From contig MEMX01000100.1 in the NCBI GenBank assembly GCA_001768075.1, forward strand, positions 1 to 37,990: DNA of 37,990 bases. Reading direction: 5' to 3'. Source of the stretch: Anaeromyxobacter sp. RBG_16_69_14. GTDB lineage: Bacteria; Myxococcota; Myxococcia; Myxococcales; Anaeromyxobacteraceae. Below, in pieces: positions 712 to 25,969 of the stretch (position 1 is the stretch's first letter; each line of letters opens with the position of its first letter). The notes under the pieces are model-generated. The model was not told the DNA's origin. It did not search any database and was given only the letters and a program-made list of their open reading frames with translations. The position numbers were made by a program, and so were the translations under genes.

Positions 712-755
712 ATGAGCAAGATCCCTGACTTCGATGAGCAAGATCCCTGACTTCC
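712..755 (+). repeat. 22-bp tandem duplication spanning the start codon of the A-T-TE gene
   Basis: ATGAGCAAGATCCCTGACTTCG followed directly by ATGAGCAAGATCCCTGACTTCC. Confidence 0.95.
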
Positions 756-3325
756 TCGAGAAGTTCTCCGAAACTGCTGCGCGTCGGAGGGACTGGGCCG
801 CGGTTGAAGCCGCGGACGGCACGCTCACGTACTCGGAGCTGGATCTACTGTCGAACCAGCTGGCGAACCGGCTGCGCGGGCTCGGCGTCGGTCGCGATTC
901 ACCCGTGGCCATCTCGTTGCCGCGCGGTGCCGGCGAACTGCTCGCGCTCCTCGCCACCGCGAAGGCGGGTGGTGCCTACGTCCCCCTCGATCCGTCGCAC
1001 CCGGCCGACCGGCTGCTCGGGATCGTAGAAGACGCGGCGCCTCACGTGCTGGTAGTGCACCCGCAATCGCCGCTGCGCGAGGCGGGGAGCACCGGCGCCC
1101 GCGTCGTGGTGTTCGAGGACATCGCGGGTGCCACGGAGGGGCACGCGGCCACGCCGCCGGACGTCCGGTCCGATCCTGAGCAGCTCGCGTACATCCTGTT
1201 CACCTCCGGCTCCACGGGGCGGCCAAAGGGCGTGGAGGTGACGCGCGGCGCATTCGGGAACTTCCTTCAGTCGATGGCCCACACGCCAGGGATGTCCGAG
1301 GACGCGCGGCTCCTCGCCATCACGACCACCTCCTTCGACATCGCCGGCCTGGAGCTGTTCCTTCCACTGTGGGTCGGAGCGACCGCCGTGATCGCCGACC
1401 GGGAGACGGTGCGGGACCCCCGTCGGCTGCGACGGCGGCTCGAGAGCGACAGGATCTCGATCATGCAGGCGACCCCTGCCGCCTGGAGGCTGCTGCTCGA
1501 GGCCGGTTGGAGAGGGGACGGCACGCTGCGCATGCTGTGCGGCGGCGAAGCTCTGTCGCCGGCGCTGGCAGATCGGCTGCTCGCGTCGGGGCGCGAGCTC
1601 TGGAACATGTACGGCCCGACGGAAACGACAGTGTGGTCGACGCTCGAGCGGATCGCGCCGGGATACGATCGCATCACCATTGGGCGACCCATCGACGAGA
1701 CGCAGGTCTACGTCCTCGATGAGGACCTGAACCCTGTGCCCGCGGGTGGGGAGGGCGAGATCTCGATCGGCGGACAAGGTCTGGCGCGCGGCTACCGCGG
1801 CCGACCCGACCTCACCGCGCAGCGGTTCGTGCAGAACCCTCGCAGCTGCGTTGGCGATCGGATTTACCGCACCGGAGATCTCGGGCGAACGCTCCCCGAC
1901 GGGCGTTTCGAGTGCCTGGGTCGACTGGACCACCAGGTGAAGATCCGCGGCTTCCGGGTGGAACTGGGGGAGATCGAGACGGTCCTGCGCTCTGTCCCGG
2001 GCGTCGCGGAAGCACTTGTCGTCGCGGACGTTCGGGACGACGGCGATCCTCGGCTCTTAGCCTACTACGTGGGTGAGGCGGATCGCGACGCGCTCATCGC
2101 GGAGGCCCAGCGCAGGCTCCCGGCCTACATGGTGCCCGCCGCCTATGTCGCGCTGACCGCGTTCCCCTTGAACACGAACGGGAAGATCGACCGCAAGCGG
2201 CTCCCCCGGCCCGAGGTGCTGCACCAGGACGGTTCGCCGTACCACCGCCCCAGGACGGACACGGAGACGCGCATCGCAGCTGTGTGGCGGGACGTCCTCG
2301 GGCTCGAGCGCGTGTCCGTCGACGAGAGCTTCTTCACCATCGGCGGGACCTCGATGCTCGCCATGCAAGTCGTCGCGCGCATCGAGGAGGAGATGTGCGT
2401 GGACGTGTCGCTGCAGGCGTTCTTCGATACCCCTACGGTAGAGGGCGTCACCGCGAGCATCGGGGAGTCCTTCTCGGCGGGCGATCCCATCGTCGTTTGG
2501 CTCCGGCGCGGCGCGTCGGAACAGCCGCCCCTGTTCTGCGTATTCGGCGTGAATCTCTACCAGGATCTGGCGCTCGCGCTTGGCGGGGATCGCTCGGTCG
2601 TGGGTGTGCACGTGCCGTTCCGATACGTGCCGGGTCGGGAGCGTCCTCCCACGCTGGCGGACATCGCGCTACGCTACCTCGAACTCGTCCGGCGCCTCCA
2701 GCGCAGCGGCCCGTACCACCTGCTCGGGCTCTGCTTTGGGGGGATCGTCGCGTACGAGATCGCCCGGAAGCTGGAGGCCATGGGCGAGACGGTGGCCATG
2801 GTGGTGGTCCTCGATGCCGTTCTGCCGAACGCCGTCCGCGTGGACCAGGGAAAGCGCCTGCGCAGCTACGCCCTGCAGGCCTGGCGGGATTGGCCAAGAG
2901 GGTGGGGGCTGGTGCGAGGCGTACCCAAGACCGTAGGGCGATGGCTCGTCTCGCGTCGACCGGTGCTGGGCGGTCTGAAGTGGCTGGGCGTGGTCGCCAA
3001 CGCTGCTCACGCCATCTTCCTCCCGGTCAATGGGCCCGAGATGGATGCCGCCGTTGCACGGTTCGCATCGGAAGCGAGCTGGTTGTCCAGCCGCCTGCTC
3101 ATCGTGCGCGCCACGAAGGAACCCATGCCGACATGGTTGTCGATCGACCCCGACCATGGGTGGGGCAAGCGAGCGGCGGAGGTGATCGTGTGCGATATCC
3201 CCGCCAACCATATGGAGATCTTGCGGGAGCCGCACGCTAGCGCGCTCGGTCGCGCGGTCACGGACGTCGCGGAGTCGCGGATGCCCTCGCCTGCGTCGGT
3301 CCGGACGACGACCCAGGGGTGTTGA
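734..3325 (+). CDS. NRPS-like protein, adenylation - carrier - thioesterase (A-T-TE)
   Basis: A-domain motifs LAYILFTSGSTGRPKG, NMYGPTETT, YRTGDLG, NGKIDRK; carrier FFTIGGTSMLAMQ; TE-like LLGLCFGGIVAYEIA. No condensation domain. Confidence 0.93.
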   Translation: MSKIPDFLEKFSETAARRRDWAAVEAADGTLTYSELDLLSNQLANRLRGLGVGRDSPVAISLPRGAGELLALLATAKAGGAYVPLDPSHPADRLLGIVEDAAPHVLVVHPQSPLREAGSTGARVVVFEDIAGATEGHAATPPDVRSDPEQLAYILFTSGSTGRPKGVEVTRGAFGNFLQSMAHTPGMSEDARLLAITTTSFDIAGLELFLPLWVGATAVIADRETVRDPRRLRRRLESDRISIMQATPAAWRLLLEAGWRGDGTLRMLCGGEALSPALADRLLASGRELWNMYGPTETTVWSTLERIAPGYDRITIGRPIDETQVYVLDEDLNPVPAGGEGEISIGGQGLARGYRGRPDLTAQRFVQNPRSCVGDRIYRTGDLGRTLPDGRFECLGRLDHQVKIRGFRVELGEIETVLRSVPGVAEALVVADVRDDGDPRLLAYYVGEADRDALIAEAQRRLPAYMVPAAYVALTAFPLNTNGKIDRKRLPRPEVLHQDGSPYHRPRTDTETRIAAVWRDVLGLERVSVDESFFTIGGTSMLAMQVVARIEEEMCVDVSLQAFFDTPTVEGVTASIGESFSAGDPIVVWLRRGASEQPPLFCVFGVNLYQDLALALGGDRSVVGVHVPFRYVPGRERPPTLADIALRYLELVRRLQRSGPYHLLGLCFGGIVAYEIARKLEAMGETVAMVVVLDAVLPNAVRVDQGKRLRSYALQAWRDWPRGWGLVRGVPKTVGRWLVSRRPVLGGLKWLGVVANAAHAIFLPVNGPEMDAAVARFASEASWLSSRLLIVRATKEPMPTWLSIDPDHGWGKRAAEVIVCDIPANHMEILREPHASALGRAVTDVAESRMPSPASVRTTTQGC

Positions 3326-5032: not shown

Positions 5033-5161
5033 TGATTCTCCAGCGGCACCGCCTCCGCTGTGAGCTGATGTCCGGCGCCTTGCGGCGCCTCAAGCGGAGG
5101 GGAGAACTCTCCCCCCGCGCCCCCCATCTCGAGCGTCAGTTCATGTGGCATGCGCTATCAG
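5033..5161. repeat. Intergenic repeat R1, full copy b
   Basis: Near identical to 41..168. Confidence 0.95.
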
Positions 5162-5180
5162 TAGCCGCTGCTTCCCCCCG

Positions 5181-5374
5181 GCGATCGAGGTGCGGGAACG
5201 GTGCGCCGTCTTGCCGTGGACTGCCCGCGCCTCACGCGGCAGCGCGCCCGGGGGGACGCCCAGTCAAGGGGTTGACGCGTTCGGCTTCCCTGCTACGCTC
5301 TGGCCGCCTCGTCTCTGTGTCACCGGAGACCTTCGGCCGACCGGCGTGTCACCGCGACCGCGAGGGACTCGACA
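5181..5374 (+). repeat. Repeat R2, copy b
   Basis: See 274..552; ends just before ATG 5376 of the acetyltransferase. Confidence 0.75.
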
Positions 5375-5375
5375 T

Positions 5376-6134
5376 ATGGAACGCGCTCGCCCCGCTGTAT
5401 CCTCGCCCCCCCTCCTGGTGCGGAACGCTCTCTCCCTGATCGTCCGGGCGCTGACTCGCCGCCTCGCGTGGAGGGCGCCGTCGACTCCGGTGCAAGCGCC
5501 GTCGCACGACGCGCCGCGCCCGCGCGGCGACCGCAACATGAACCCGCGCGGTATCGGATTCCTGGAGTTGCTTGCGGAGGACTACCGGACACACGAGCAC
5601 AAGCTGCTCGAACCCGGGTTCTGGGCCATCGCGGTCCACCGTTTCGGCAACCTACGCATGGACGTCCGGCCCAAGTTGCTGCGAGCGCCGTTGTCCCGGG
5701 CGTACTTGCTGCTATCCACCGCGGTGAACTGGACATGGGGAATCGACCTCCCATACACGGTGCGTCTCGGGCGTCGCGTCCGCATCTGGCACCACGGAGG
5801 CATCGTGCTCGGTGCGCGCTCCATCGGCGACGACGTGCACATCCGGCAGAACACGACGTTCGGCGTGCGAAGCCGGCAGGCCCTGGAGAGCATCCCCATC
5901 ATTGGCGACCGCGTCGACATCGCCGCGGGCGCCTGCGTCGTAGGCGCGGTGACGGTCGGGGATGACTGCGTCATCGGACCGAATTCCGTCGTGCTCCGGG
6001 ACGTTCCTCCCGGCTCGACAGTGATGGGCGCCCCGGCGCGGCTGGCGACCTTCGGAGCGGGGGATGCGCCCGGCGCGGGCGCCACCACTCGGACGGACGA
6101 CCGAGGGCGCGGAAGCGTTGGGCCCCCGGGCTGA
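5376..6134 (+). CDS. Serine acetyltransferase-like left-handed beta-helix (hexapeptide) acyltransferase
   Basis: IWHHGGIVLGARSIGDDVHIRQNTTFG...IIGDRVDIAAGACVVGAVTVGDDCVIGPNSVVLRDVPPGSTVMGAPAR; start could be ATG 5376 or ATG 5538. The longer ORF from 5145 runs into repeat sequence. Confidence 0.82.
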   Translation: MERARPAVSSPPLLVRNALSLIVRALTRRLAWRAPSTPVQAPSHDAPRPRGDRNMNPRGIGFLELLAEDYRTHEHKLLEPGFWAIAVHRFGNLRMDVRPKLLRAPLSRAYLLLSTAVNWTWGIDLPYTVRLGRRVRIWHHGGIVLGARSIGDDVHIRQNTTFGVRSRQALESIPIIGDRVDIAAGACVVGAVTVGDDCVIGPNSVVLRDVPPGSTVMGAPARLATFGAGDAPGAGATTRTDDRGRGSVGPPG

Positions 6135-9974: not shown

Positions 9975-11366
9975 ATGCGCAACTACGGATCTCAGCTGGA
10001 TTTGCCGGGCTACGAGGGCGACGGCGCGCCGGAGCCGGCGCCCGGGCCCTCGCTGCCCGACTGGGGTAGGCTCGTGCTGGGTGCGGTCTGGCGCCGCAAG
10101 GCTCTCGCCGCGGCAGTATTCCTGCTGGGTGTCACTGCTTCAGCGGTGTATTATTGGCTGAGAACTCCGCTCTACCATGTCGAAACCAAGATCCTGGCAC
10201 AGCGACAGCAGACGCTGCCGTCCATCGTGCGACCTGGGGGACCAGACGAAGCGCCGACGCGCTCGGCCCACGAGCTCGTGCACCGGCGCGAGAACCTGAT
10301 CAACCTCGTCAAGCAGACGAACCTCTTCGTCGGACCCGGCACCGCCACCTCGAAGAGCTGGCTCGAGCGGATCACGTCGCCTTCCACCAGTCCTTCTCGA
10401 GAGGACGAGGACCCTCTGAACGCGCTCGTCCTCGAGCTCGATCGCGCGCTCGTGGTCACGACCGCAGAGGGGGTCATCACGATCGAGATCGACTGGCCCG
10501 ATCCCCAGCAAGCCTATCACCTTCTTCAGACAGCCCAGGAGAACTTCCTCGAGGCGCGCCACCTGCAGGAAATCACGGTGATCGACGACGTGATCTCCCT
10601 TCTGCGGGGGCGCGCCGCGACGCTCGCCGCGGACCTGCAGAAGGTCATCGAAGAGGTACAGCTAGGAGTCGTCCGCGGCGGCGACGGCTCCCCACGCTCG
10701 GCGGCGCCGCGAGCGGGGACGAGCGAGGATCTGGCGCAGCTCAGGGCGAAGATCGACGCCAAAGAGCGCGCCATACTGGACGTCGAGGAGTTCCGCCGGC
10801 GGCGCTTGGCGGATCTGCAAGCCCAGCTCGACGAGAAGCGGGGGGTTTACTCCGACGCCTACCCGAGCGTGGTCAGCCTGCGTCAGGACATCGAGGCGCT
10901 CACGGGGGAGTCCCCTCAGGCCGCACGACTTCGCGAGGACGAGCGAAAGCTGCGAGCTGAGTACGCGGCACGCCTCGGCGAAGCGGGCCAGCTGCGCGCG
11001 CCTGCCCCGCTGGCCCCCGCGCCGCGCCGCGGCACCGACGCCTCGCTCGAACAGAACGAGCGCGTGCGGGAAGCGCGGCTCCAGTACCAGCAGATGCTGG
11101 AACGCGTGAACGTAGCGCAGCTCGAGCTGGACACCGCGCGCGCCGGCTTCAAGTACCGCTATACGATCGTCTGGCCCGCGGAGGTGCCCACGAAGACCTC
11201 CAGCCCAAGACCGCTCAAGACTTTCGGGCTGGGGATGATCGTATCGCTGCTGCTCGCTCTCGTCGCGGCCGTCGCGCCCGATCTGCGGTCAGGCCGGGTC
11301 GTGGAGCGCTGGCAGGTCGAGCGCACCCTCGACCTTCCGGTGCTTGCCGAGGTCAACCCAAAGTGA
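9975..11366 (+). CDS. Chain-length determinant / Wzz-GumC-like protein, no C-terminal kinase domain
   Basis: N-terminal TM (ALAAAVFLLGVTASAVYYWLRTPLYHVETKILA), long coiled-coil centre, C-terminal TM (TFGLGMIVSLLLALVAAVAPDL). Confidence 0.85.
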   Translation: MRNYGSQLDLPGYEGDGAPEPAPGPSLPDWGRLVLGAVWRRKALAAAVFLLGVTASAVYYWLRTPLYHVETKILAQRQQTLPSIVRPGGPDEAPTRSAHELVHRRENLINLVKQTNLFVGPGTATSKSWLERITSPSTSPSREDEDPLNALVLELDRALVVTTAEGVITIEIDWPDPQQAYHLLQTAQENFLEARHLQEITVIDDVISLLRGRAATLAADLQKVIEEVQLGVVRGGDGSPRSAAPRAGTSEDLAQLRAKIDAKERAILDVEEFRRRRLADLQAQLDEKRGVYSDAYPSVVSLRQDIEALTGESPQAARLREDERKLRAEYAARLGEAGQLRAPAPLAPAPRRGTDASLEQNERVREARLQYQQMLERVNVAQLELDTARAGFKYRYTIVWPAEVPTKTSSPRPLKTFGLGMIVSLLLALVAAVAPDLRSGRVVERWQVERTLDLPVLAEVNPK

Positions 11367-11457: not shown

Positions 11458-14400
11458 TCACCGGTCGTGCCCAGTGGGCTTCTGGTGCAGGTGCTTCACC
11501 CTCCTCGCGATGGACTCGGCGATCGGCTCGAACGCTTCCTTGCTGCGGACGATACTGAGGTGGTCGCCGGGCACGCTCTCGACCTCCAGGCGCCTAAACT
11601 CGCTCGCGTCCCAGCCGTTGCCGGCGACTCCGTTGTCGTCGTCCGCCGCGCAGACGAGCAGGGTGTCCACGTCCAGAAAGGGCGGCGCGTGGCGCCGCCC
11701 GACCAGTTCGTACATGCCGAGGACATAGCGCGAGCGATCGGCGATGGGCACCCTGCCCCTCCTCACGAGTTCGAGCTCCGCGCGAGCGATGTCGCGAAGG
11801 AGGCCGGCCCCGTCGATGGCATGCCGCACAGACCGGCGCACCCGCCTCAGGCCTGGAGGAAAGGGGTTCTTGAAACACCGGGGATGCGCTGTGTCGATGA
11901 GGACGAGAAGATCGACGGGGAGCCCCGCCCTCCGCAACAGGTACGCGACCTGGTGCGCGACGAGCCCGCCAAAGGAATGCCCTGCGATGATGCAGGGTAC
12001 CCCCTTCTCCGCCGCCATCCATTCCGCATGGCACTGGCCGGCCAGCGCCTCGACGGAACGAAGCCGGATGCGTTCCCCGTCCGAGCCCTGGTGCGCGTAG
12101 CCGTAGATCGACTGCCCGGCCGGCAACAACGGTGGCAGGAGATCGTTGCCGAGGTCGCCGTGGATGAGTAGCAAGGGGAAGCGCCCGTCACCGCGGCGGA
12201 GGGGGAACAGCCCGCGAAAGTCTCCCAGAGCCCCGGTGCGTGGCGATGGCGCCACCTCGCGATGAGCTCGAGCTGTTCGCTCGCGAATCGCCGCGGCGAG
12301 CTTGTCGACGGTGTTGAACTGGGAGAGCTGCGCGAAGCCGATGGTGATCGCGAACCGCGCGGTGAGGACCTCGGCGAGCTGGACCAGGAAGAGCGAGTCA
12401 AGGCCCAGGCTCGAGAAGGGCAGTGCGGGATCCAGGGCCTCTCGCGCGATCCCCGACCTGTCATGGACGAGATCGACGAGCTGGTCGCGGAGATCATCTG
12501 CGCTCGCAGCCGCGCCGGCGCCGGTGGCTGGTCCGACCCTTTCGGCGTCCGCGAGCGGCTGCCTGGTCGCGCGGCGCGCGGCGGGGGCGTCCTTCCAGTA
12601 CCGCTGGCGCTGGAACGGATAGGTGGGCAGCGTCGGAGCGGCCGTCCCGGGGTCCAGATCGCCCAGCAGATCCACGTCGATCCCGCAGGCCCATAGCTCG
12701 TTCAACCCACGCTGCAAGCGTTCCGGCGCCCAGCCCGCCGCGTCGCGAGGTCTCCCCAGGAGCGGGAGCGCGCGCTGCCTCTTCGGATTGCGAAGTCGCG
12801 CCCTGACGAGGGTGGTGAGGCTGTCACCCATGCCCACCTCCAGCGCGACACAGCACGGCTCCTCGAGCAGGGTCGTGACAGCGGCGTCGAACCGCACCGG
12901 CAACCGCGGCTGCGCTGCCCAGTAGTCCGGGCTCGTGACCTCCCCGTCGAGCATCCACTTCCCCGTCACGGGCGACAGGAGCGGGCGGTCGGGTGCGTGC
13001 CAGCGTCGCGCCGGGAGTTCGCGGCGCAGGCTCTCGACAACCGGGTTCATGAGCGGCGAATGAACCGCGACGTCGATGGGCACGGCTCGAGAGACGACGC
13101 CATCGGCAGCGAGCCGAGCTGCGCACCTCTCGATGGCTTCGGGGCGCCCACTGAGGAGGCACAGCTGCGGTCCGTTGACGCACGCGACCGCCACCTCGCC
13201 TTGCAGGTAAGGAGCGGCGTCTGCCTCCGACAGGCGCGCGACGAGAGCAGCTCCGGGACCGGTCTCTTGCATGAGCTGCCCGCGGCGATGGACCGCCCAC
13301 AGCGCGTCCTCCGCCGTGAGCACTCCGGCGAGGTGGGCACCCACCCACTCCCCGAGCGAGTGACCGACGAAGCCGTCTGCCCGCACCCCGCGCGACTCGA
13401 GCCACCGCGCCAGCGCGACGTCCACGCAAAAGACCGCCAGCTGCGCCTTGGCGTTGTCGCGGCGCAGGGGCTCCGCGTCGGCGCTCGGATCGGTGGCCCA
13501 GCCCAGGAGGTCGAAGCCGGCGAGCTCAGAGGCGGCGCGGGCCAGCGGCTCGAAGTACCCGCGGAGACCCGGCTCCTCGGCGAGCGGGCGCGCCAGCGCT
13601 CCCGCGTGCAGGCTACCCTGGCCCGGGAATGACATCACCAGCTTGGGGCGGCCTTCGAGCGCCGTCTCCGTGTCCCATCGCTCGGGGTCCCGCAGCGCAG
13701 AGCGCGCGTCTGCCCAGCTGACCACGCGGACGGCGCGTCGATGCGAGAAGAGCTTGCGCCTCTGCTGGAGCGCGCACGCCACCTCGGTGAGCGGCCGCGG
13801 CGCCTGCCCACCTCCGCACTGCGCATCCACCCAACCCGCGACGCGGCCGGTATACGCGTCGAGCGCCGCGCGGCTGCGGGCCGACAGGAGCAACGTCGTC
13901 TTCTCCGGAACATGCAGATCGCAGGCGCCTTCGGGATCGACCGGGGCCTCCTCCAGGACGACATGGGCATTGGTGCCGCCGATGCCGAACGAGCTCACTC
14001 CTGCGCGACGCGGGTGGGGCCCTTCGGGCCACGGCCCTGTTTCACGGTTGACGAAGAACGGGGAGTCCTCGAGCCGGAGCTCCGGGTTCGGACGCTCGAA
14101 ATGCGCGGTGGCAGGGAGCCGTCGATGGCGCAGGGCGAGCACCGCCCGCATGAGGCCCGCGACCCCCGCAGCAGCGTCGAGATGCCCGATGTTGCCCTTG
14201 ACGGACCCGAGACAGCAGGACTCCTTTCGCGTCGCCTGCCGGAACGCGAGCTTGAGCGCCTCGACCTCGATCGGATCCCCCATCGGCGTCGCCGTGCCGT
14301 GCCCCTCGACATAGCCGATCGTGCCTGGGTCCACCCCGGCCAGCGCCTGGGCAGTCGCGATGACCTCGGCCTGCCCCTTCACGCTGGGCGCGAAGTAGCT

Positions 14401-15267
14401 CACCTTGTCGTGCCCGTCGTTGTTGACGGCCACCCCGCGGATCACGGCCAGCACGGGGTCTCGATCGCGGCGAGCGTCGGCGAGCCGCTTGAGCACGACC
14501 GCGCCCGCTCCGTTGCCGAACACGGTGCCGCAAGCGTTGGCGTCGTACGGCCGGCAGATGCCGTCGCGGGACTGGATCGCACCTTCCTGGAAGAAATACC
14601 CGGTCCGCTGGGGGACGGCGATGCAGACCCCTCCGGCGATGGCCATGTCCGTCTCGTAGCTGGACAGCCCCTGCACGGCGAGGGCGACGGCCACGAGCGA
14701 GGTGGAGCAGGCCGTCTGGACGTTGATGGCCGGACCGCGCAGGTTCAGCTTGTAGGCAGTGCGACTGGGCAGGAATGCCGGATCGCTCTGCACCAGGAGG
14801 CCGAAGGACTGGGCCCGTCGCATGCGCACGAACTCCTCCACGGCCGCGCGGTCGGGGAGGAGATTGTGATGCAGGTACGTGTTCGGAAAGCTCCCGGCAT
14901 ACACCGAGACCATCTGCTGGTGCCGGTCGTGCGCGTAGCCCGCCGCTTCGAGCGCCTCCCAGGCCACCTCGAGCCAGACGCGATGCTGGGGATCGAGCTG
15001 CGCTGCCTCCACCGGGTTGACGTCGAAGAAGTCCGCGTCGAAGTCCTCGATACCTTGCAGTACACCTCGCGCGCGGACGTACTGCTCGCCATCACGCGGC
15101 CCGTCCAGGTCCGAGTCCTCGGCGCCGTCGTCGGCATCGAAGCGGCTGATCGTGTCCCGCCCCTCGGCGATGACACGCCAGAAGGCATCGAGGTCCTCTG
15201 CGCCGGGAAAACGCCCGGCCATCCCGATGATGGCGATGTCCCTGTCTTCGGAGGATTCGGTGGTCAT
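11458..15267 (-). CDS. Type I polyketide synthase, KS-AT-ACP-TE
   Basis: KS VQTACSTSLVAV, VEGHGTATPMGDP, KGNIGHLDAAAG; AT GHSLGEW; ACP LGLDSLFLVQL; TE AGHSFGGLVAHQ. Start ATG at 15267 (MTTESSEDRDIAIIGMAGRFPG) overlaps the asnB-like stop. Confidence 0.94.
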   Translation of the reverse strand: MTTESSEDRDIAIIGMAGRFPGAEDLDAFWRVIAEGRDTISRFDADDGAEDSDLDGPRDGEQYVRARGVLQGIEDFDADFFDVNPVEAAQLDPQHRVWLEVAWEALEAAGYAHDRHQQMVSVYAGSFPNTYLHHNLLPDRAAVEEFVRMRRAQSFGLLVQSDPAFLPSRTAYKLNLRGPAINVQTACSTSLVAVALAVQGLSSYETDMAIAGGVCIAVPQRTGYFFQEGAIQSRDGICRPYDANACGTVFGNGAGAVVLKRLADARRDRDPVLAVIRGVAVNNDGHDKVSYFAPSVKGQAEVIATAQALAGVDPGTIGYVEGHGTATPMGDPIEVEALKLAFRQATRKESCCLGSVKGNIGHLDAAAGVAGLMRAVLALRHRRLPATAHFERPNPELRLEDSPFFVNRETGPWPEGPHPRRAGVSSFGIGGTNAHVVLEEAPVDPEGACDLHVPEKTTLLLSARSRAALDAYTGRVAGWVDAQCGGGQAPRPLTEVACALQQRRKLFSHRRAVRVVSWADARSALRDPERWDTETALEGRPKLVMSFPGQGSLHAGALARPLAEEPGLRGYFEPLARAASELAGFDLLGWATDPSADAEPLRRDNAKAQLAVFCVDVALARWLESRGVRADGFVGHSLGEWVGAHLAGVLTAEDALWAVHRRGQLMQETGPGAALVARLSEADAAPYLQGEVAVACVNGPQLCLLSGRPEAIERCAARLAADGVVSRAVPIDVAVHSPLMNPVVESLRRELPARRWHAPDRPLLSPVTGKWMLDGEVTSPDYWAAQPRLPVRFDAAVTTLLEEPCCVALEVGMGDSLTTLVRARLRNPKRQRALPLLGRPRDAAGWAPERLQRGLNELWACGIDVDLLGDLDPGTAAPTLPTYPFQRQRYWKDAPAARRATRQPLADAERVGPATGAGAAASADDLRDQLVDLVHDRSGIAREALDPALPFSSLGLDSLFLVQLAEVLTARFAITIGFAQLSQFNTVDKLAAAIRERTARAHREVAPSPRTGALGDFRGLFPLRRGDGRFPLLLIHGDLGNDLLPPLLPAGQSIYGYAHQGSDGERIRLRSVEALAGQCHAEWMAAEKGVPCIIAGHSFGGLVAHQVAYLLRRAGLPVDLLVLIDTAHPRCFKNPFPPGLRRVRRSVRHAIDGAGLLRDIARAELELVRRGRVPIADRSRYVLGMYELVGRRHAPPFLDVDTLLVCAADDDNGVAGNGWDASEFRRLEVESVPGDHLSIVRSKEAFEPIAESIARRVKHLHQKPTGHDR

Positions 15268-17454: not shown

Positions 17455-17772
17455 ATGTCTTCGACAGCCTGCACCATACCTCCGATGCCGCAGCACGAAG
17501 ATGCGCACGCAGCGTCCCAGATCGACGAGGTGCGTTCGGCGCTGCTGGCGTTCGTGACGCGCAGCTTCATGGTGAACGAAGCGGACATCGACCGTGACCG
17601 GTCGCTCATTGACCAAGGGGTCATCGACTCCTTCGGGCTCGTCGAGATCACCGCCTTCATCTTCCAGCAATTCGCGGTGGAGGTGCGGGAGGAGGACATG
17701 ACCCGCGAGGCGTTCGGATCCTTGAACAAGATGGCCAGGTTCGTCGCCCGGCGAATGCGAGAGCACGCGTGA
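17455..17772 (+). CDS. Stand-alone acyl carrier protein
   Basis: DRSLIDQGVIDSFGLVEITAFIFQQFAVEV (DSF phosphopantetheine site). ATG 17455 preferred to the ORF start at 17374. Confidence 0.85.
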   Translation: MSSTACTIPPMPQHEDAHAASQIDEVRSALLAFVTRSFMVNEADIDRDRSLIDQGVIDSFGLVEITAFIFQQFAVEVREEDMTREAFGSLNKMARFVARRMREHA

Positions 17773-18812
17773 GCTCCGCACGCTGCACGCGGTGTGTGCT
17801 GTCGTCGTCCTTCCCGGGGCTGACCTTCGACGGCGAGGGCGTGTGCAGCTTCTGCCGCGGCGAGCTCATGCTCACGAGCGAGGAGAGCGCCGTCGAGCAC
17901 GCACGCCGGCAGGTGGAGCAGCTCTTCGCCGTGCGGACCCGTCCCTACGACGCGGTCTTGTGCAACAGCGGGGGCAAGGACAGCTCGTACACGCTCAAGC
18001 TCGCCGTCGAAAAGTACGGGCTCCGGGTACTGTCCTTCACGCTCGACAACGGCTTCATCTCCCCGAAGGCCTTCGAGAACATACGCTGCGTGGTCGACGC
18101 GCTCGGCGTGGACCACCTCACGGTCCGGCCATCCATGCAGATCCTGCGCCGGATCTTCAAGGCGGCTGCGCTCTTGCCCATCTACCGCGACAAGACGCTC
18201 ACCCGCATCTCGGCGGGTTGCAACGCGTGCATCTCGATCGTCAACACCACGGGGCTCCGCCTGGCCCTCGAGAAGAGTGCCCCGTTCATCCTCGCCGGCT
18301 TCACGCTCGGTCAGATCCCGGCCAACGCCATCGTCTATCGCAACAACTTCAGATTCCTGGCCGAGAGCCGCGAAGAGAGCCTCGGGCGGCTGCGAGCCGC
18401 GGTCGGCCGGGAAGTCGACGAGTACTACGGGATCGGCGACAGCCTGCTCGATCGCGCAGGCCCGTCCCCGCACAACGTCAACCTCCTCTGTCTGGAGCGC
18501 GTCACCGACGAGGAGATCGTCCAGGCCGTACAGGTGCTCGGGTGGCAGCGCCCGAAGGACGTGGATGGCTGCTCGTCCAACTGTCAGCTCAACACGTTCA
18601 ACAACCACGTGCACCAGCGCCGGTTCGGCTACAGCCCCTACGAGCTCGAGCTGAGCCACCTGATCCGCAAGGGGCTCATGAGCCGCGAGGAAGCACTGGA
18701 GAAGATCGCGGACCAGCCGCTGGAGCAGCTGGCGGCGATCGCCTCGCGCCTGGAGCTGAGCCCGCCGGAGCGCGTGGCCCTCTGGATCCCGCCGGGCCGA
18801 CCGCCAGCGTGA
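17769..18812 (+). CDS. PP-loop ATPase / adenine nucleotide alpha-hydrolase-like protein, resembling WbpG-type amidotransferases or sulfur-transfer AANH enzymes
   Basis: Zinc-ribbon CTRC...CSFC, PP-loop NSGGKDSS, then GCNACIS and GCSSNCQ; GTG start overlaps the ACP stop. Confidence 0.85.
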   Translation: MSSARCTRCVLSSSFPGLTFDGEGVCSFCRGELMLTSEESAVEHARRQVEQLFAVRTRPYDAVLCNSGGKDSSYTLKLAVEKYGLRVLSFTLDNGFISPKAFENIRCVVDALGVDHLTVRPSMQILRRIFKAAALLPIYRDKTLTRISAGCNACISIVNTTGLRLALEKSAPFILAGFTLGQIPANAIVYRNNFRFLAESREESLGRLRAAVGREVDEYYGIGDSLLDRAGPSPHNVNLLCLERVTDEEIVQAVQVLGWQRPKDVDGCSSNCQLNTFNNHVHQRRFGYSPYELELSHLIRKGLMSREEALEKIADQPLEQLAAIASRLELSPPERVALWIPPGRPPA

Positions 18813-19657
18813 CCAGCGCGCGGATCTGCCTGCGGCGAAGCGTCGGGGCCGCCGTCGTGTCGCTGCTGGCCGTGCTGACCGGCTGCCGCGGCAGAACCGC
18901 TCCACCGTCCGAGCAGGTGCGTGCGCTCGCCGCGCAGATGGCGCCAGGGAGGTTCGAAGGAGCCGGTCGCGCTTACGCGCTCCCGTACCGGCTCTTCGTC
19001 CCCAGGGGTTACCAGGCGAGCCGTGCCTACCCGCTGGTGCTCTACCTGCATGGCGCGAGCGGCTCGGGCGACGACGGCGTGGCCCACCTCTCGTCCGACG
19101 TCGCCGCCCTCGTCTCCGAGCGCGTGCAGGCGCTCAGCGCTGCGTTCGTGCTGGCCCCGCAGTGTCCGCGCGACGACGAATGGGTCAATCGCCACGACCG
19201 ACCGCCCTTCGCGAACTACCTGCAGGCGAACGTGCCGGAGAGCGACGCCTCGAAGATGACGTTCGAGGTGCTGGAGAGGGTCCGTGCCCGGTACAATGTG
19301 GACCCGAGCCGCCTCTACGTGACCGGGCCGTCGATGGGCGGCTCGGGCACCTGGGACTTCATCACCCGCCACCCCGGGGTCTTTGCGGCCGCGGTCCCGG
19401 TCACTGGCGTGAACGACCCTTCGCGCGCCCCGGTCATCGCCGGCCTCCCGATCTGGGCCTTTCACGGCTCGCGCGACGCCATCTCGAGCGCGGCCAACAC
19501 ACGTGCGATGGTGGAAGCGCTGCGCCGGCTCGGGAGCCCGGTGAGGTTCACCGAGTTCGAGGCGGTGGGCCACGACAGCTGGACCCACGCCTACGCCAAC
19601 CTCGAGCTGTACCGCTGGCTGTTCGCACAGCGAGGCCGGGTCGATCCCCGGCGCTGA
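18809..19657 (+). CDS. Secreted lipoprotein alpha/beta hydrolase (esterase/peptidase-like)
   Basis: GTG start overlapping previous TGA; lipobox VLTGC; YPLVLYLHGASGSGDDG, nucleophile elbow TGPSMGGSGTW, late GHDSW histidine. Confidence 0.83.
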   Translation: MTSARICLRRSVGAAVVSLLAVLTGCRGRTAPPSEQVRALAAQMAPGRFEGAGRAYALPYRLFVPRGYQASRAYPLVLYLHGASGSGDDGVAHLSSDVAALVSERVQALSAAFVLAPQCPRDDEWVNRHDRPPFANYLQANVPESDASKMTFEVLERVRARYNVDPSRLYVTGPSMGGSGTWDFITRHPGVFAAAVPVTGVNDPSRAPVIAGLPIWAFHGSRDAISSAANTRAMVEALRRLGSPVRFTEFEAVGHDSWTHAYANLELYRWLFAQRGRVDPRR

Positions 19658-19674: not shown

Positions 19675-19740
19675 GGAGGGGAGAACTCTCCCCCCGCGCC
19701 CCCCATCTCGAGCGTCAGTTCATGTGGCATGCGCTATCAG
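19675..19740. repeat. Intergenic repeat R1, partial copy c (right-hand 66 bp)
   Basis: GGAGGGGAGAACTCTCCCCCCGCGCCCCCCATCTCGAGCGTCAGTTCATGTGGCATGCGCTATCAG. Confidence 0.95.
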
Positions 19741-23371: not shown

Positions 23372-23403
23372 CGAGCGTCAGTTCATGTGGCATGCGCTAT
23401 CAG
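23372..23403. repeat. Intergenic repeat R1, terminal copy d
   Basis: CGAGCGTCAGTTCATGTGGCATGCGCTATCAG. Confidence 0.93.
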
Positions 23404-23993
23404 ACGAGCAAGCACCCAGCGATCCGTTCGCGGCCGACGAGCTCGATCGTCCGGCGTGCAGACGCGAGGTGTGTGCGCCCCATCTCGACGCACAGGATCG
23501 AAGTATCCGCGGCCTGCGTCACCGCCAGGCCGAGCGGCTCCGCGACCACCGGCTGGATCGCGATGATCACCTTGCCGATCGCGGGTCGCGTGCTGCCCCG
23601 CCCGGTCGACGCGGCGCTGGCGACCATCTGCACGGCGGACGCGTACCCCAGCGAGTTCGCGGGGGTAATCGGTGCGTTGCTCCCCTCCTCCCCACCCCCC
23701 TGCGTGGATGCAGCGGTGGTGACGATCTGCAGTGCAGGCCAGTAATCGAGCGGATTTGCCATGACGAAGAGCGTCACCGGAAACTCGTGCAATTGCCGGC
23801 CTACCTCCGCGAGCGAGGTCGCAGCGGCGGCTGCAGATTCACCTGCATCCGCAGGTACCAGGACGACGGACCTCCACTCTCTCCGGGCCAGCGCGAACCA
23901 GAGCTCCTGGAAAGCGCGGCGGGGACGGTCCGAACCGCTCACCGTGCCCTCGCGTGCAAGGCGGCGGGCTTCGGAGTCATCTGCTTCATGCAC
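23400..23993 (-). CDS. CpsD/BY-kinase-like protein with degraded P-loop, copy 1
   Basis: FQELWFALARREWRSVVLVPADAGESAAAAATSLAEVGRQL matches the layout of the CpsD Walker A region without GKS/T; C-terminal ADTSILCVEMGRTHLASARRTIELVGRERIAGCLL resembles the end of CpsD. Homology inferred by eye. Confidence 0.6.
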   Translation of the reverse strand: MHEADDSEARRLAREGTVSGSDRPRRAFQELWFALARREWRSVVLVPADAGESAAAAATSLAEVGRQLHEFPVTLFVMANPLDYWPALQIVTTAASTQGGGEEGSNAPITPANSLGYASAVQMVASAASTGRGSTRPAIGKVIIAIQPVVAEPLGLAVTQAADTSILCVEMGRTHLASARRTIELVGRERIAGCLLV

Positions 23994-24612: not shown

Positions 24613-24716
24613 AATGATATAAAATGGTGTGAAGCTTAAGTTCGATTGTCACCCGTTCCGGGAGAGCGCTTGGGGGTGGATTCGGTGCATTCGAATTCGG
24701 AGATGGCTTGGTCGTG

Positions 24717-25346
24717 ATGACGAGCGGCAGCGAGAATATAGGGCGTGTCGGAGAGGTGGACCTCTGGCTCCTGCACCTCGACCTGCCGGATCCAGAGCTG
24801 TCGCAGCGCTGGTCGGATCTCTCGACCGCGGAGCGCGAGCGAGCAGACCAGCTCTCGCGACCGGAGGTGCGCCGCCGCTTCATCGCTGCCCGGTCCGGCC
24901 TGCGCCGCGTCCTGGCGAGCTATCTCTCGGTACCTCCGCGTTCGCTCGAGTTCTTCAAGGGCCCGCAGGGGAAGCCGGCACTTCCGGGCGGCCCCCAGTT
25001 CAACCTGTCACACTCCGATGACCTGGCCCTGTGCGCGGTAGCGCACGGCCGCCAGGTGGGGATCGACCTGGAGCGACTGCGGCGCATCCCGGAACGTGAC
25101 GACATCGCCCGGCAGTGGTTCCGCGAGGAGGAGCGGGAGGCGTACCACGCCGAGAGCGCGTCGCGGGACAGCGCCTTCCTCCGCCTGTGGACGCGCCGGG
25201 AGGCCTATCTGAAAGCCATCGGCACGGGGCTCGCGGGCCTCGAGACTTCGAGCGCCATCGATCCCGAGCGCTGGGAGGTACACGAGCTTCGGCCTTTCGA
25301 TGGCTATGTCGGCGCTCTGGTCGTCGAGCGGATCCTGGGATCGTGA
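24717..25346 (+). CDS. 4'-phosphopantetheinyl transferase (Sfp type)
   Basis: FNLSHSDDLALCAVA, VGIDLERLR, FLRLWTRREAYLKAIGTGL. Confidence 0.93.
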   Translation: MTSGSENIGRVGEVDLWLLHLDLPDPELSQRWSDLSTAERERADQLSRPEVRRRFIAARSGLRRVLASYLSVPPRSLEFFKGPQGKPALPGGPQFNLSHSDDLALCAVAHGRQVGIDLERLRRIPERDDIARQWFREEEREAYHAESASRDSAFLRLWTRREAYLKAIGTGLAGLETSSAIDPERWEVHELRPFDGYVGALVVERILGS

Positions 25347-25387: not shown

Positions 25388-25969
25388 TCAAGACGTCGTG
25401 AGCAGGCACCCAGCAATCCGTTCGCGGCCGATGAGCTCGATCGTCCGGCGTGCGGATGCGAGTTGTGTGCCTCCCTTCTTGACGCACAGGATCGCAATAT
25501 CAGCGGCCTGGGTCACCGCCAGACCGAGAGGCTCCGCGACCACCGGCTGGACCGCGACGATCACCTTGCCAGTAAGGGGACGCATGACGCTCTGCTCCGC
25601 CGATGCGGCGCTGGCGACGATCTGCACGGCGGAAACGTAGTCGAGCGCGTTCTCCGGCGCGGGTGGTTCGACGATCCCCGTATCCGTCGAAGCGGTGGTG
25701 ACGATCTGCAACGCAGGCCAGTAGTCGAGCGGATTCGCCATGATGAAGAGCGTGACCGGAAGCTCGTGCAGCTGCCTGCCCACCTCCGCCAGCGAGGTCG
25801 CTGCGGCCGCTGCAGATTCACCGGCATCGGCAGGAACCAGGACGACCGACCTCCAGTCCCTCCGGGCCAGCGCGAACCAGAGCTCCTGGAATTCGCGGCT
25901 GGGCGGCTGCCGTCGGCGCCCCGCAGCCGGACTCAGTTCCATCGCGACCTGGTTGACCCTGCTCGTCAT
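25388..25969 (-). CDS. CpsD/BY-kinase-like protein with degraded P-loop, copy 2 (paralogue of 23400..23993)
   Basis: High amino-acid and DNA similarity to 23400..23993 over most of its length. Confidence 0.6.
   Translation of the reverse strand: MTSRVNQVAMELSPAAGRRRQPPSREFQELWFALARRDWRSVVLVPADAGESAAAAATSLAEVGRQLHELPVTLFIMANPLDYWPALQIVTTASTDTGIVEPPAPENALDYVSAVQIVASAASAEQSVMRPLTGKVIVAVQPVVAEPLGLAVTQAADIAILCVKKGGTQLASARRTIELIGRERIAGCLLTTS

What the first reader, a model, noticed from the sequence alone, without database searches (positions are those of the whole stretch)
17455..19657. ACP - PP-loop enzyme - lipoprotein hydrolase operon that could install sulfur or nitrogen on a carrier-bound acyl group
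The three genes overlap by GTGA at both junctions, implying translational coupling. The PP-loop protein has, besides the N-terminal CTRC/CSFC zinc ribbon, CNAC (residues 151-154) and CSSNC (268-272) after the NSGGKDSS loop. PP-loop enzymes of the TtcA/TtuA type use later cysteines for an Fe-S cluster in thiolation, and AANH-like enzymes are implicated in thioamide formation on carrier-bound substrates in closthioamide biosynthesis. WbpG-like amidation is the alternative.
Basis: partly seen in the sequence, partly recalled or inferred. Interest (0 to 1): 0.74.

Follow-up and report, generated by a model that had tools for sequence, protein, structure and literature searches.

The report
Carrier-bound amide-modifying PP-loop enzyme cassette
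Next to a small antibiotic-type assembly line sits a three-gene set whose middle enzyme probably alters an amide group held on a carrier protein, most likely turning it into a nitrile (possibly a thioamide); it belongs to a group of enzymes with an iron-sulfur-type cysteine site that is widespread, usually mis-named as sugar enzymes, and this subgroup has not been tested.

Summary
In detail: ACP (17455-17772), PP-loop protein (17769-18812) and lipoprotein esterase (18809-19657) overlap by GTGA at both junctions. Divergent to them, AsnB and a KS-AT-ACP-TE PKS overlap by ATGA. The arrangement recurs in two other Myxococcales MAGs.
The PP-loop protein is not a WbpG-type sugar amidotransferase: true members lack C151, C154 and C272. 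Those cysteines match the [4Fe-4S] ligands of TtuA and of the thioamide synthetase CtaC (C154/C157/C284). C268 is not conserved.
The same triad is also in the AMDH domains inserted in NRPS adenylation domains (cystobactamid CysH; homologous to albicidin AlbIV), which dehydrate carrier-bound asparagine to cyanoalanine. So the triad does not prove sulfur chemistry.
Genome context points to a primary carboxamide substrate. Asn/Gln-coded A[PP-loop] loci never carry AsnB (0/12); acidic-type codes always do (7/7). 26/29 stand-alone loci carry AsnB or a NadE-like amide synthetase.
Best reading: AsnB amidates a carboxylate on the ACP and the PP-loop enzyme dehydrates it to a nitrile (about 0.5); thioamide is the main rival (about 0.25). 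Phylogeny alone does not decide. I found no characterised member of this clade in the open-access papers searched.

The parts
11458..15267 (-). PKS module KS-AT-ACP-TE; start ATG 15267-15265 overlaps the AsnB stop by ATGA
   Evidence: Pfam domains; start and overlap; KS 65-67% and AT 49-51% identical in L019/L024
15264..17294 (-). AsnB-type glutamine amidotransferase/amide synthetase, Cys2 (MCG) and SGGVDS intact; proposed to amidate an ACP-bound carboxylate
   Evidence: TIGR01536 434 bits, above cut-off 267; motifs
17455..17772 (+). stand-alone acyl carrier protein, Ser59 attachment site (GVIDS)
   Evidence: PF00550 22.2 bits; best NCBIfam AmcB and DltC-type ACPs below cut-off; serine position
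17769..18812 (+). PP-loop (AANH) enzyme, GTG start in a GTGA overlap; proposed carrier-bound amide dehydratase, rival thioamide synthetase
17967..17984 (+). SGGKDS PP-loop, residues 67-72
18219..18230 (+). codons of C151 and C154 (CNAC), predicted [4Fe-4S] ligands
   Evidence: aligned with CtaC C154/C157 and with TtuA CSYC
18582..18584 (+). codon of C272, predicted third cluster ligand, aligned with CtaC C284
18809..19657 (+). lipoprotein alpha/beta-hydrolase (PHB-depolymerase/esterase type), lipobox LTGC, GPSMGG; accessory role unknown
   Evidence: PF00756, PF00326, PF01738 over cut-off; motifs; homologues beside the cassette in L019, L021-L024
19741..23064 (-). NRPS module C-A-T, A-domain code DVWLIILVG
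   Evidence: Pfam, code; L024 keeps a homologue, C 49% and A 60%
24708..25346 (+). Sfp-type phosphopantetheinyl transferase, likely activates the carriers
   Evidence: PF01648 60.7 bits

Best explanation
A two-enzyme device that works on an acyl group held on the small ACP. AsnB uses glutamine to convert a free carboxylate of the ACP-bound acyl group into a primary carboxamide. The PP-loop enzyme then activates the amide oxygen with ATP and eliminates it, giving a carrier-bound nitrile, as the AMDH domain of CysH does with asparagine. Its active site includes a three-cysteine [4Fe-4S]-type site. The nitrile-bearing acyl-ACP then feeds the neighbouring NRPS (C-A-T) and PKS (KS-AT-ACP-TE); the esterase acts outside the cytoplasm, role unknown. 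Shown by sequence: gene set and overlaps, family placement outside WbpG, cysteine triad, context rule. Inferred: identity of the acyl group, nitrile as product, cluster occupancy, order of assembly.
For: (1) C151/C154/C272 align with CtaC C154/C157/C284; C151/C154 also align with TtuA CSYC. True WbuX proteins lack all three. (2) The Cys-bearing clade inserted in NRPS A domains includes a CysH: L143 lies in a locus with PABA synthase, B12-radical SAM, O-methyltransferase, dioxygenase and PABA-type NRPS genes. CysH dehydrates carrier-bound Asn to cyanoalanine, and purified CysH is dark brown (PMC7966384). (3) Context rule: Asn- or Gln-type codes, AsnB 0/12; DARH/DPRH codes, AsnB 7/7 (Fisher p = 2e-5, not corrected for kinship). 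DPRHLALLAK is listed for alpha-aminoadipate. (4) 26 of 29 stand-alone loci with enough flank carry AsnB (21) or only a NadE-like amide synthetase (5). (5) Residues 181, 264, 269, 271, 275, 291 are shared by window and AMDH clades and differ in the CtaC clade; one residue shows the reverse. Window and AMDH clades are sisters at 84/83.
Against: The sister relation is only moderately supported and a window+CtaC clade is not rejected (AU p = 0.39). No stand-alone member of this clade has been assayed as far as I could find. The acyl group on the ACP is unknown. AsnB could act elsewhere in the pathway. CysH also shows aminomutase activity, so the outcome need not be a nitrile. Fe-S binding is predicted, not measured, also for CysH.
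Confidence: 0.5

Rival explanations
1. Thioamide synthetase like CtaC: the Fe-S cluster delivers sulfide to the ATP-activated amide on the ACP, giving a (primary) thioamide.
For: Same triad as CtaC, which is carrier-dependent and Fe-S-dependent (PMC6772006). AU test does not reject window+CtaC. TtuA is the next structural relative after the Legionella amidotransferase.
Against: Window shares G181, D264, S269, N271, N275, Y291 with AMDH and not with the CtaC clade. Neither wide-flank CtaC-clade locus, L133 (CtaC) or L136, has AsnB nearby. No sulfur-carrier gene was recognised near the cassette, though closthioamide lacks one too.
Confidence: 0.25
2. WbpG/WbuX-type amidotransferase: amide to amidine with ammonia supplied by AsnB.
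For: The best curated NCBIfam hit is WbuX (122 bits); closest fold in the PDB is the Legionella N-acetyl sugar amidotransferase (TM 0.6).
Against: Below the WbuX cut-off of 203. True WbuX lack the triad and fall in a separate 100/100 clade. Where NadE-like replaces AsnB there is no glutaminase domain, and Asn-coded loci have no AsnB at all.
Confidence: 0.08
3. Aminomutase or cyclisation catalyst: the activated amide is attacked internally (as in isoasparagine formation by CysH), giving an isomerised or cyclic product.
For: AMDH is bifunctional, aminomutase or dehydratase depending on prior hydroxylation (PMC7966384).
Against: No CysJ-type hydroxylase was recognised in the window cluster; needs an amine neighbour on the acyl group, unknown.
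Confidence: 0.1

Closest known systems
AMDH domain of cystobactamid CysH / homologous domain of albicidin AlbIV
   Same: PP-loop fold with zinc ribbon, the C..C...C triad (seen in the CysH-type domain of L143), carrier-bound primary carboxamide substrate, same near-invariant residues
   Different: AMDH is inserted inside an Asn-activating A domain; the window enzyme is a separate protein with its own ACP and a neighbouring AsnB that could make the amide
CtaC, closthioamide thioamide synthetase (R. cellulolyticum)
   Same: Stand-alone, carrier-dependent, same three cysteines and PP-loop
   Different: 22% identity; different residues at 181, 264, 269, 271, 275, 291 in its clade; acts on backbone amides of a peptidyl-PCP; cluster without AsnB
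WbpG/WbuX N-acetyl sugar amidotransferases (TIGR03573)
   Same: Overall fold, zinc tetracysteine motif, PP-loop
   Different: No Fe-S-type cysteines; window protein below family cut-off
TtuA/TtcA tRNA thiolases
   Same: CxxC...C cluster ligands and PP-loop
   Different: tRNA substrate; low sequence and fold similarity (TM about 0.35)

Membership tests
WbuX/WbpG N-acetyl sugar amidotransferase (TIGR03573) | score above the curated cut-off | tested here: not met
   122.4 bits against 203.2
WbuX/WbpG N-acetyl sugar amidotransferase (TIGR03573) | zinc tetracysteine motif plus SGGxDS | tested here: met
   C6, C9, C26, C29; SGGKDS 67-72; motif as in PMC10607449
WbuX/WbpG N-acetyl sugar amidotransferase (TIGR03573) | phylogenetic nesting among sugar amidotransferases | tested here: not met
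   WbuX rows form a separate 100/100 clade
CtaC-type thioamide synthetase | PP-loop and three cluster cysteines at CtaC 154/157/284 | tested here: met
   C151/C154/C272
CtaC-type thioamide synthetase | clade with CtaC to the exclusion of AMDH | tested here: inconclusive
   best tree says no (84/83 for window+AMDH) but AU p = 0.39
CtaC-type thioamide synthetase | sulfur insertion on a carrier-bound amide | not testable with these tools
   needs enzyme assay
AMDH amide dehydratase/aminomutase domain | inserted in an Asn-activating A domain | tested here: not met
   stand-alone protein; inserted forms make a separate clade
AMDH amide dehydratase/aminomutase domain | shared near-invariant residues incl. 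G181, D264, S269, N271, N275, Y291 | tested here: met
AMDH amide dehydratase/aminomutase domain | dehydration of carrier-bound carboxamide | not testable with these tools
   inferred from AsnB/NadE context only
TtuA/TtcA Fe-S sulfurtransferases | three cysteines clustering around a [4Fe-4S] | tested here: inconclusive
   sequence positions match; distances in the model could not be measured, no metal data

The most novel reading that the evidence does not exclude
A widespread portable cassette (loading enzyme, ACP, AsnB or NadE-like amide synthetase, PP-loop enzyme with a [4Fe-4S]-type site) converts a carrier-bound carboxylate to a nitrile in two steps; the same kind of cluster serves both nitrile formation (AMDH, this clade) and thioamide formation (CtaC), so the brown colour of CysH comes from a TtuA-type Fe-S cluster.
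Probability: 0.38. Interest if true: 0.78.

Novelty: new variant of a known kind. Interest (0 to 1): 0.62.

Why it matters
It ties three lines together: carrier-bound thioamide synthesis (CtaC), the unexplained metal-coloured amide dehydratase of cystobactamid/albicidin-type NRPSs, and a large set of stand-alone ACP-linked genes now annotated as sugar amidotransferases or 7-cyano-7-deazaguanine synthases. It gives a direct prediction (three named cysteines, a Fe-S cluster, -18 versus +16 Da on the ACP) and a genome-mining rule (PP-loop enzyme plus carrier plus AsnB/NadE) for nitrile- or thioamide-bearing natural products in many phyla.

Tried and rejected
WbpG-like amidation: rejected as best reading (cysteines, tree, score, context). 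C268 as a ligand: rejected, not conserved. An alignment of all eight first homologues failed as a genome query for lack of a conserved stretch; a three-sequence alignment worked. My own first conclusion, thioamide because of the triad, was dropped after finding that Asn-coded A[PP-loop] proteins are AMDH domains. An AU test to exclude a window+CtaC clade did not succeed. Measuring Cys-Cys distances in the AlphaFold model was not possible, no coordinates were exported. TIGR03573 hits as one clade also failed: L147 (above the WbuX cut-off) does not group with the other WbuX rows.

Full report
What is there. The window is the start of a 126-kb contig of a 5.64-Mb genome. ACP, PP-loop protein and lipoprotein esterase run on the + strand with GTGA overlaps. 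Divergent from a 160-bp gap, AsnB and a KS-AT-ACP-TE PKS run on the - strand with an ATGA overlap. An NRPS C-A-T module and an Sfp-type PPTase lie downstream. Two Myxococcales MAGs from a fen, L019 and L024, keep the same divergent layout: PP-loop 65-66%, AsnB 58-64%, ACP 56-72%, hydrolase 43-50% identical; L024 also keeps the NRPS. Four more distant bacteria (L020-L023: Pseudoalteromonas, Spirochaetales, Marinilabiliaceae, Alteromonadaceae) have AsnB-ACP-PP-loop next to NRPS and KS-AT genes, PP-loop 52-56% identical. The unit is therefore real and kept by selection.

Which family. The only strong curated hit is WbuX, and far below its cut-off; every one of 62 relatives hits the same model, which is why such proteins are labelled sugar amidotransferase or, on Bacillus plasmids, 7-cyano-7-deazaguanine synthase. 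The AlphaFold model (pLDDT 95, pTM 0.93) is closest to the Legionella N-acetyl sugar amidotransferase, then to TtuA. In an alignment of 121 sequences, 107 have Cys at positions 151, 154 and 272; those above the WbuX cut-off and their kin have none. I recovered CtaC from a genome whose single 4,068,724-bp contig fits R. cellulolyticum: its cysteines fall at 154, 157 and 284 and its PP-loop at 73-78, exactly as numbered in PMC6772006. The window triad aligns with these; CNAC also aligns with CSYC of Pyrococcus TtuA. C268 is not conserved.

Tree. A careful 58-row tree gives four clean groups: WbuX (100/100), CtaC clade (100/99), A-domain-inserted clade (100/99) and the window clade of stand-alone carrier-linked enzymes (98/99); window and inserted clades are sisters at 84/83. 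Holding window with CtaC is not rejected (p-AU 0.39). So the order of the three triad-bearing clades is open. The window clade shares residues G181, D264, S269, N271, N275 and Y291 with the inserted clade against the CtaC clade (N271 is Gly in all CtaC-clade rows); only F96 goes the other way.

The turning point. In the inserted clade the PP-loop domain sits between A8 and A10 of an adenylation domain. Ten such loci from many phyla have the specificity code DLTK(I/V)GE(V/I)G, two have DxQDxGxxD. PMC12283262 lists DLTKIGEVGK with cyanoalanine, notes the AANH-type insertion in albicidin AlbIV, lists DAQDLGVVDK for Glu/Gln and DPRHLALLAK for alpha-aminoadipate. PMC7966384 reports that the AMDH domain of CysH dehydrates carrier-bound Asn to cyanoalanine in vitro, that homologues sit in Asn-specific A domains, that the mechanism is unknown, that CysH is dark brown, and that no CxxCxxxC motif was found. 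One of my loci, L143, is a cystobactamid-type cluster: PABA synthase, B12 radical-SAM methyltransferase, methyltransferase, dioxygenase, NRPS, then the A-AMDH-T protein. Its domain has the triad (VCNGC, STNC). Hence the triad does not separate sulfur insertion from dehydration, and it offers a candidate for the unexplained metal of CysH.

The context rule. Of loci with Asn- or Gln-type codes none of 12 has AsnB; of those with DARH/DPRH codes all 7 have it upstream (Fisher p = 2e-5; the seven fall in about two lineages, so the p value overstates independence). Among 29 stand-alone loci with at least 5 kb upstream and 4.5 kb downstream, 21 have AsnB and 5 more have a NadE-like synthetase instead; nearly all AsnB with a complete N-terminus keep Cys2, the exception being a split copy in L038 that sits beside a NadE-like gene. 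The window genome has five AsnB above the family cut-off, so chance would put one within 10 kb in about 2% of cases. These NadE-like proteins (about 325 aa) show no glutaminase domain, so they can make an amide but not feed ammonia to a partner. Together: the PP-loop enzyme needs a primary carboxamide, bought in as Asn/Gln or made in place.

Mechanism. Shown: anatomy, conservation, family placement, context. Inferred: AsnB amidates a carboxylate of the ACP-bound acyl group; the PP-loop enzyme adenylates the amide oxygen; elimination gives a nitrile, as in CysH (confidence 0.5), or sulfide attack a thioamide, as in CtaC (0.25). In this subgroup the neighbouring C-A-T and KS-AT modules would take the acyl-ACP as starter. 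Malonyl to malonamoyl to cyanoacetyl is one possible acyl series (my guess, untested). Several non-NRPS members sit in polysaccharide loci with a stand-alone AMP-ligase close to the exosortase-A type, so the cassette is not confined to antibiotics.

Verdict. The sulfur reading is possible, not best. Novelty: new variant of a known kind.

Noticed in passing
window 19709-19740 and 23372-23403: Exact 32-nt direct repeat (CGAGCGTCAGTTCATGTGGCATGCGCTATCAG) flanks the NRPS gene, suggesting the module was inserted or moved as a unit.
   Followed up: partly
window 23406-23924 and 25400-25903: Two copies (81-89% identical) of a minus-strand ORF flank the PPTase gene; a duplicated neighbour around an inserted PPTase.
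   Followed up: no
window 5145-6134 and 9975-11366: Exopolysaccharide-type genes (EpsC-like acetyltransferase, EpsV-like chain-length protein, both below cut-off) lie left of the cluster.
   Followed up: no
window 734-3325: Separate A-T-TE protein with Gly-like code DILQLGMVW; whether it belongs to the same pathway is unknown.
   Followed up: no
L143 (G056:C40:36000-53707) 12123-15184: Cystobactamid-type CysH whose AMDH domain carries a CxxC...C triad not recognised in the 2021 paper, a candidate for its unexplained brown metal cofactor.
   Followed up: yes
L013 13834-30280 (B. thuringiensis HD1002 360-kb plasmid): Hydrolase-ACP-PP-loop-two ligases-two carriers-KS-FabZ-KS-FabG-AsnB-PPTase-radical SAM cluster on a conjugative plasmid.
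   Followed up: partly
L107, L125, L126/L135: Inserted PP-loop domains with the catalytic Asp of the PP-loop replaced (SGGKGS, SGGRGA) in Clostridia, probably inactive or altered.
   Followed up: no
L025, L036, L038, L041, L047: NAD synthetase-like gene near the PP-loop gene (directly adjacent in L025, L036, L038, L047; 3 kb away in L041), apparently replacing AsnB in some loci.
   Followed up: partly
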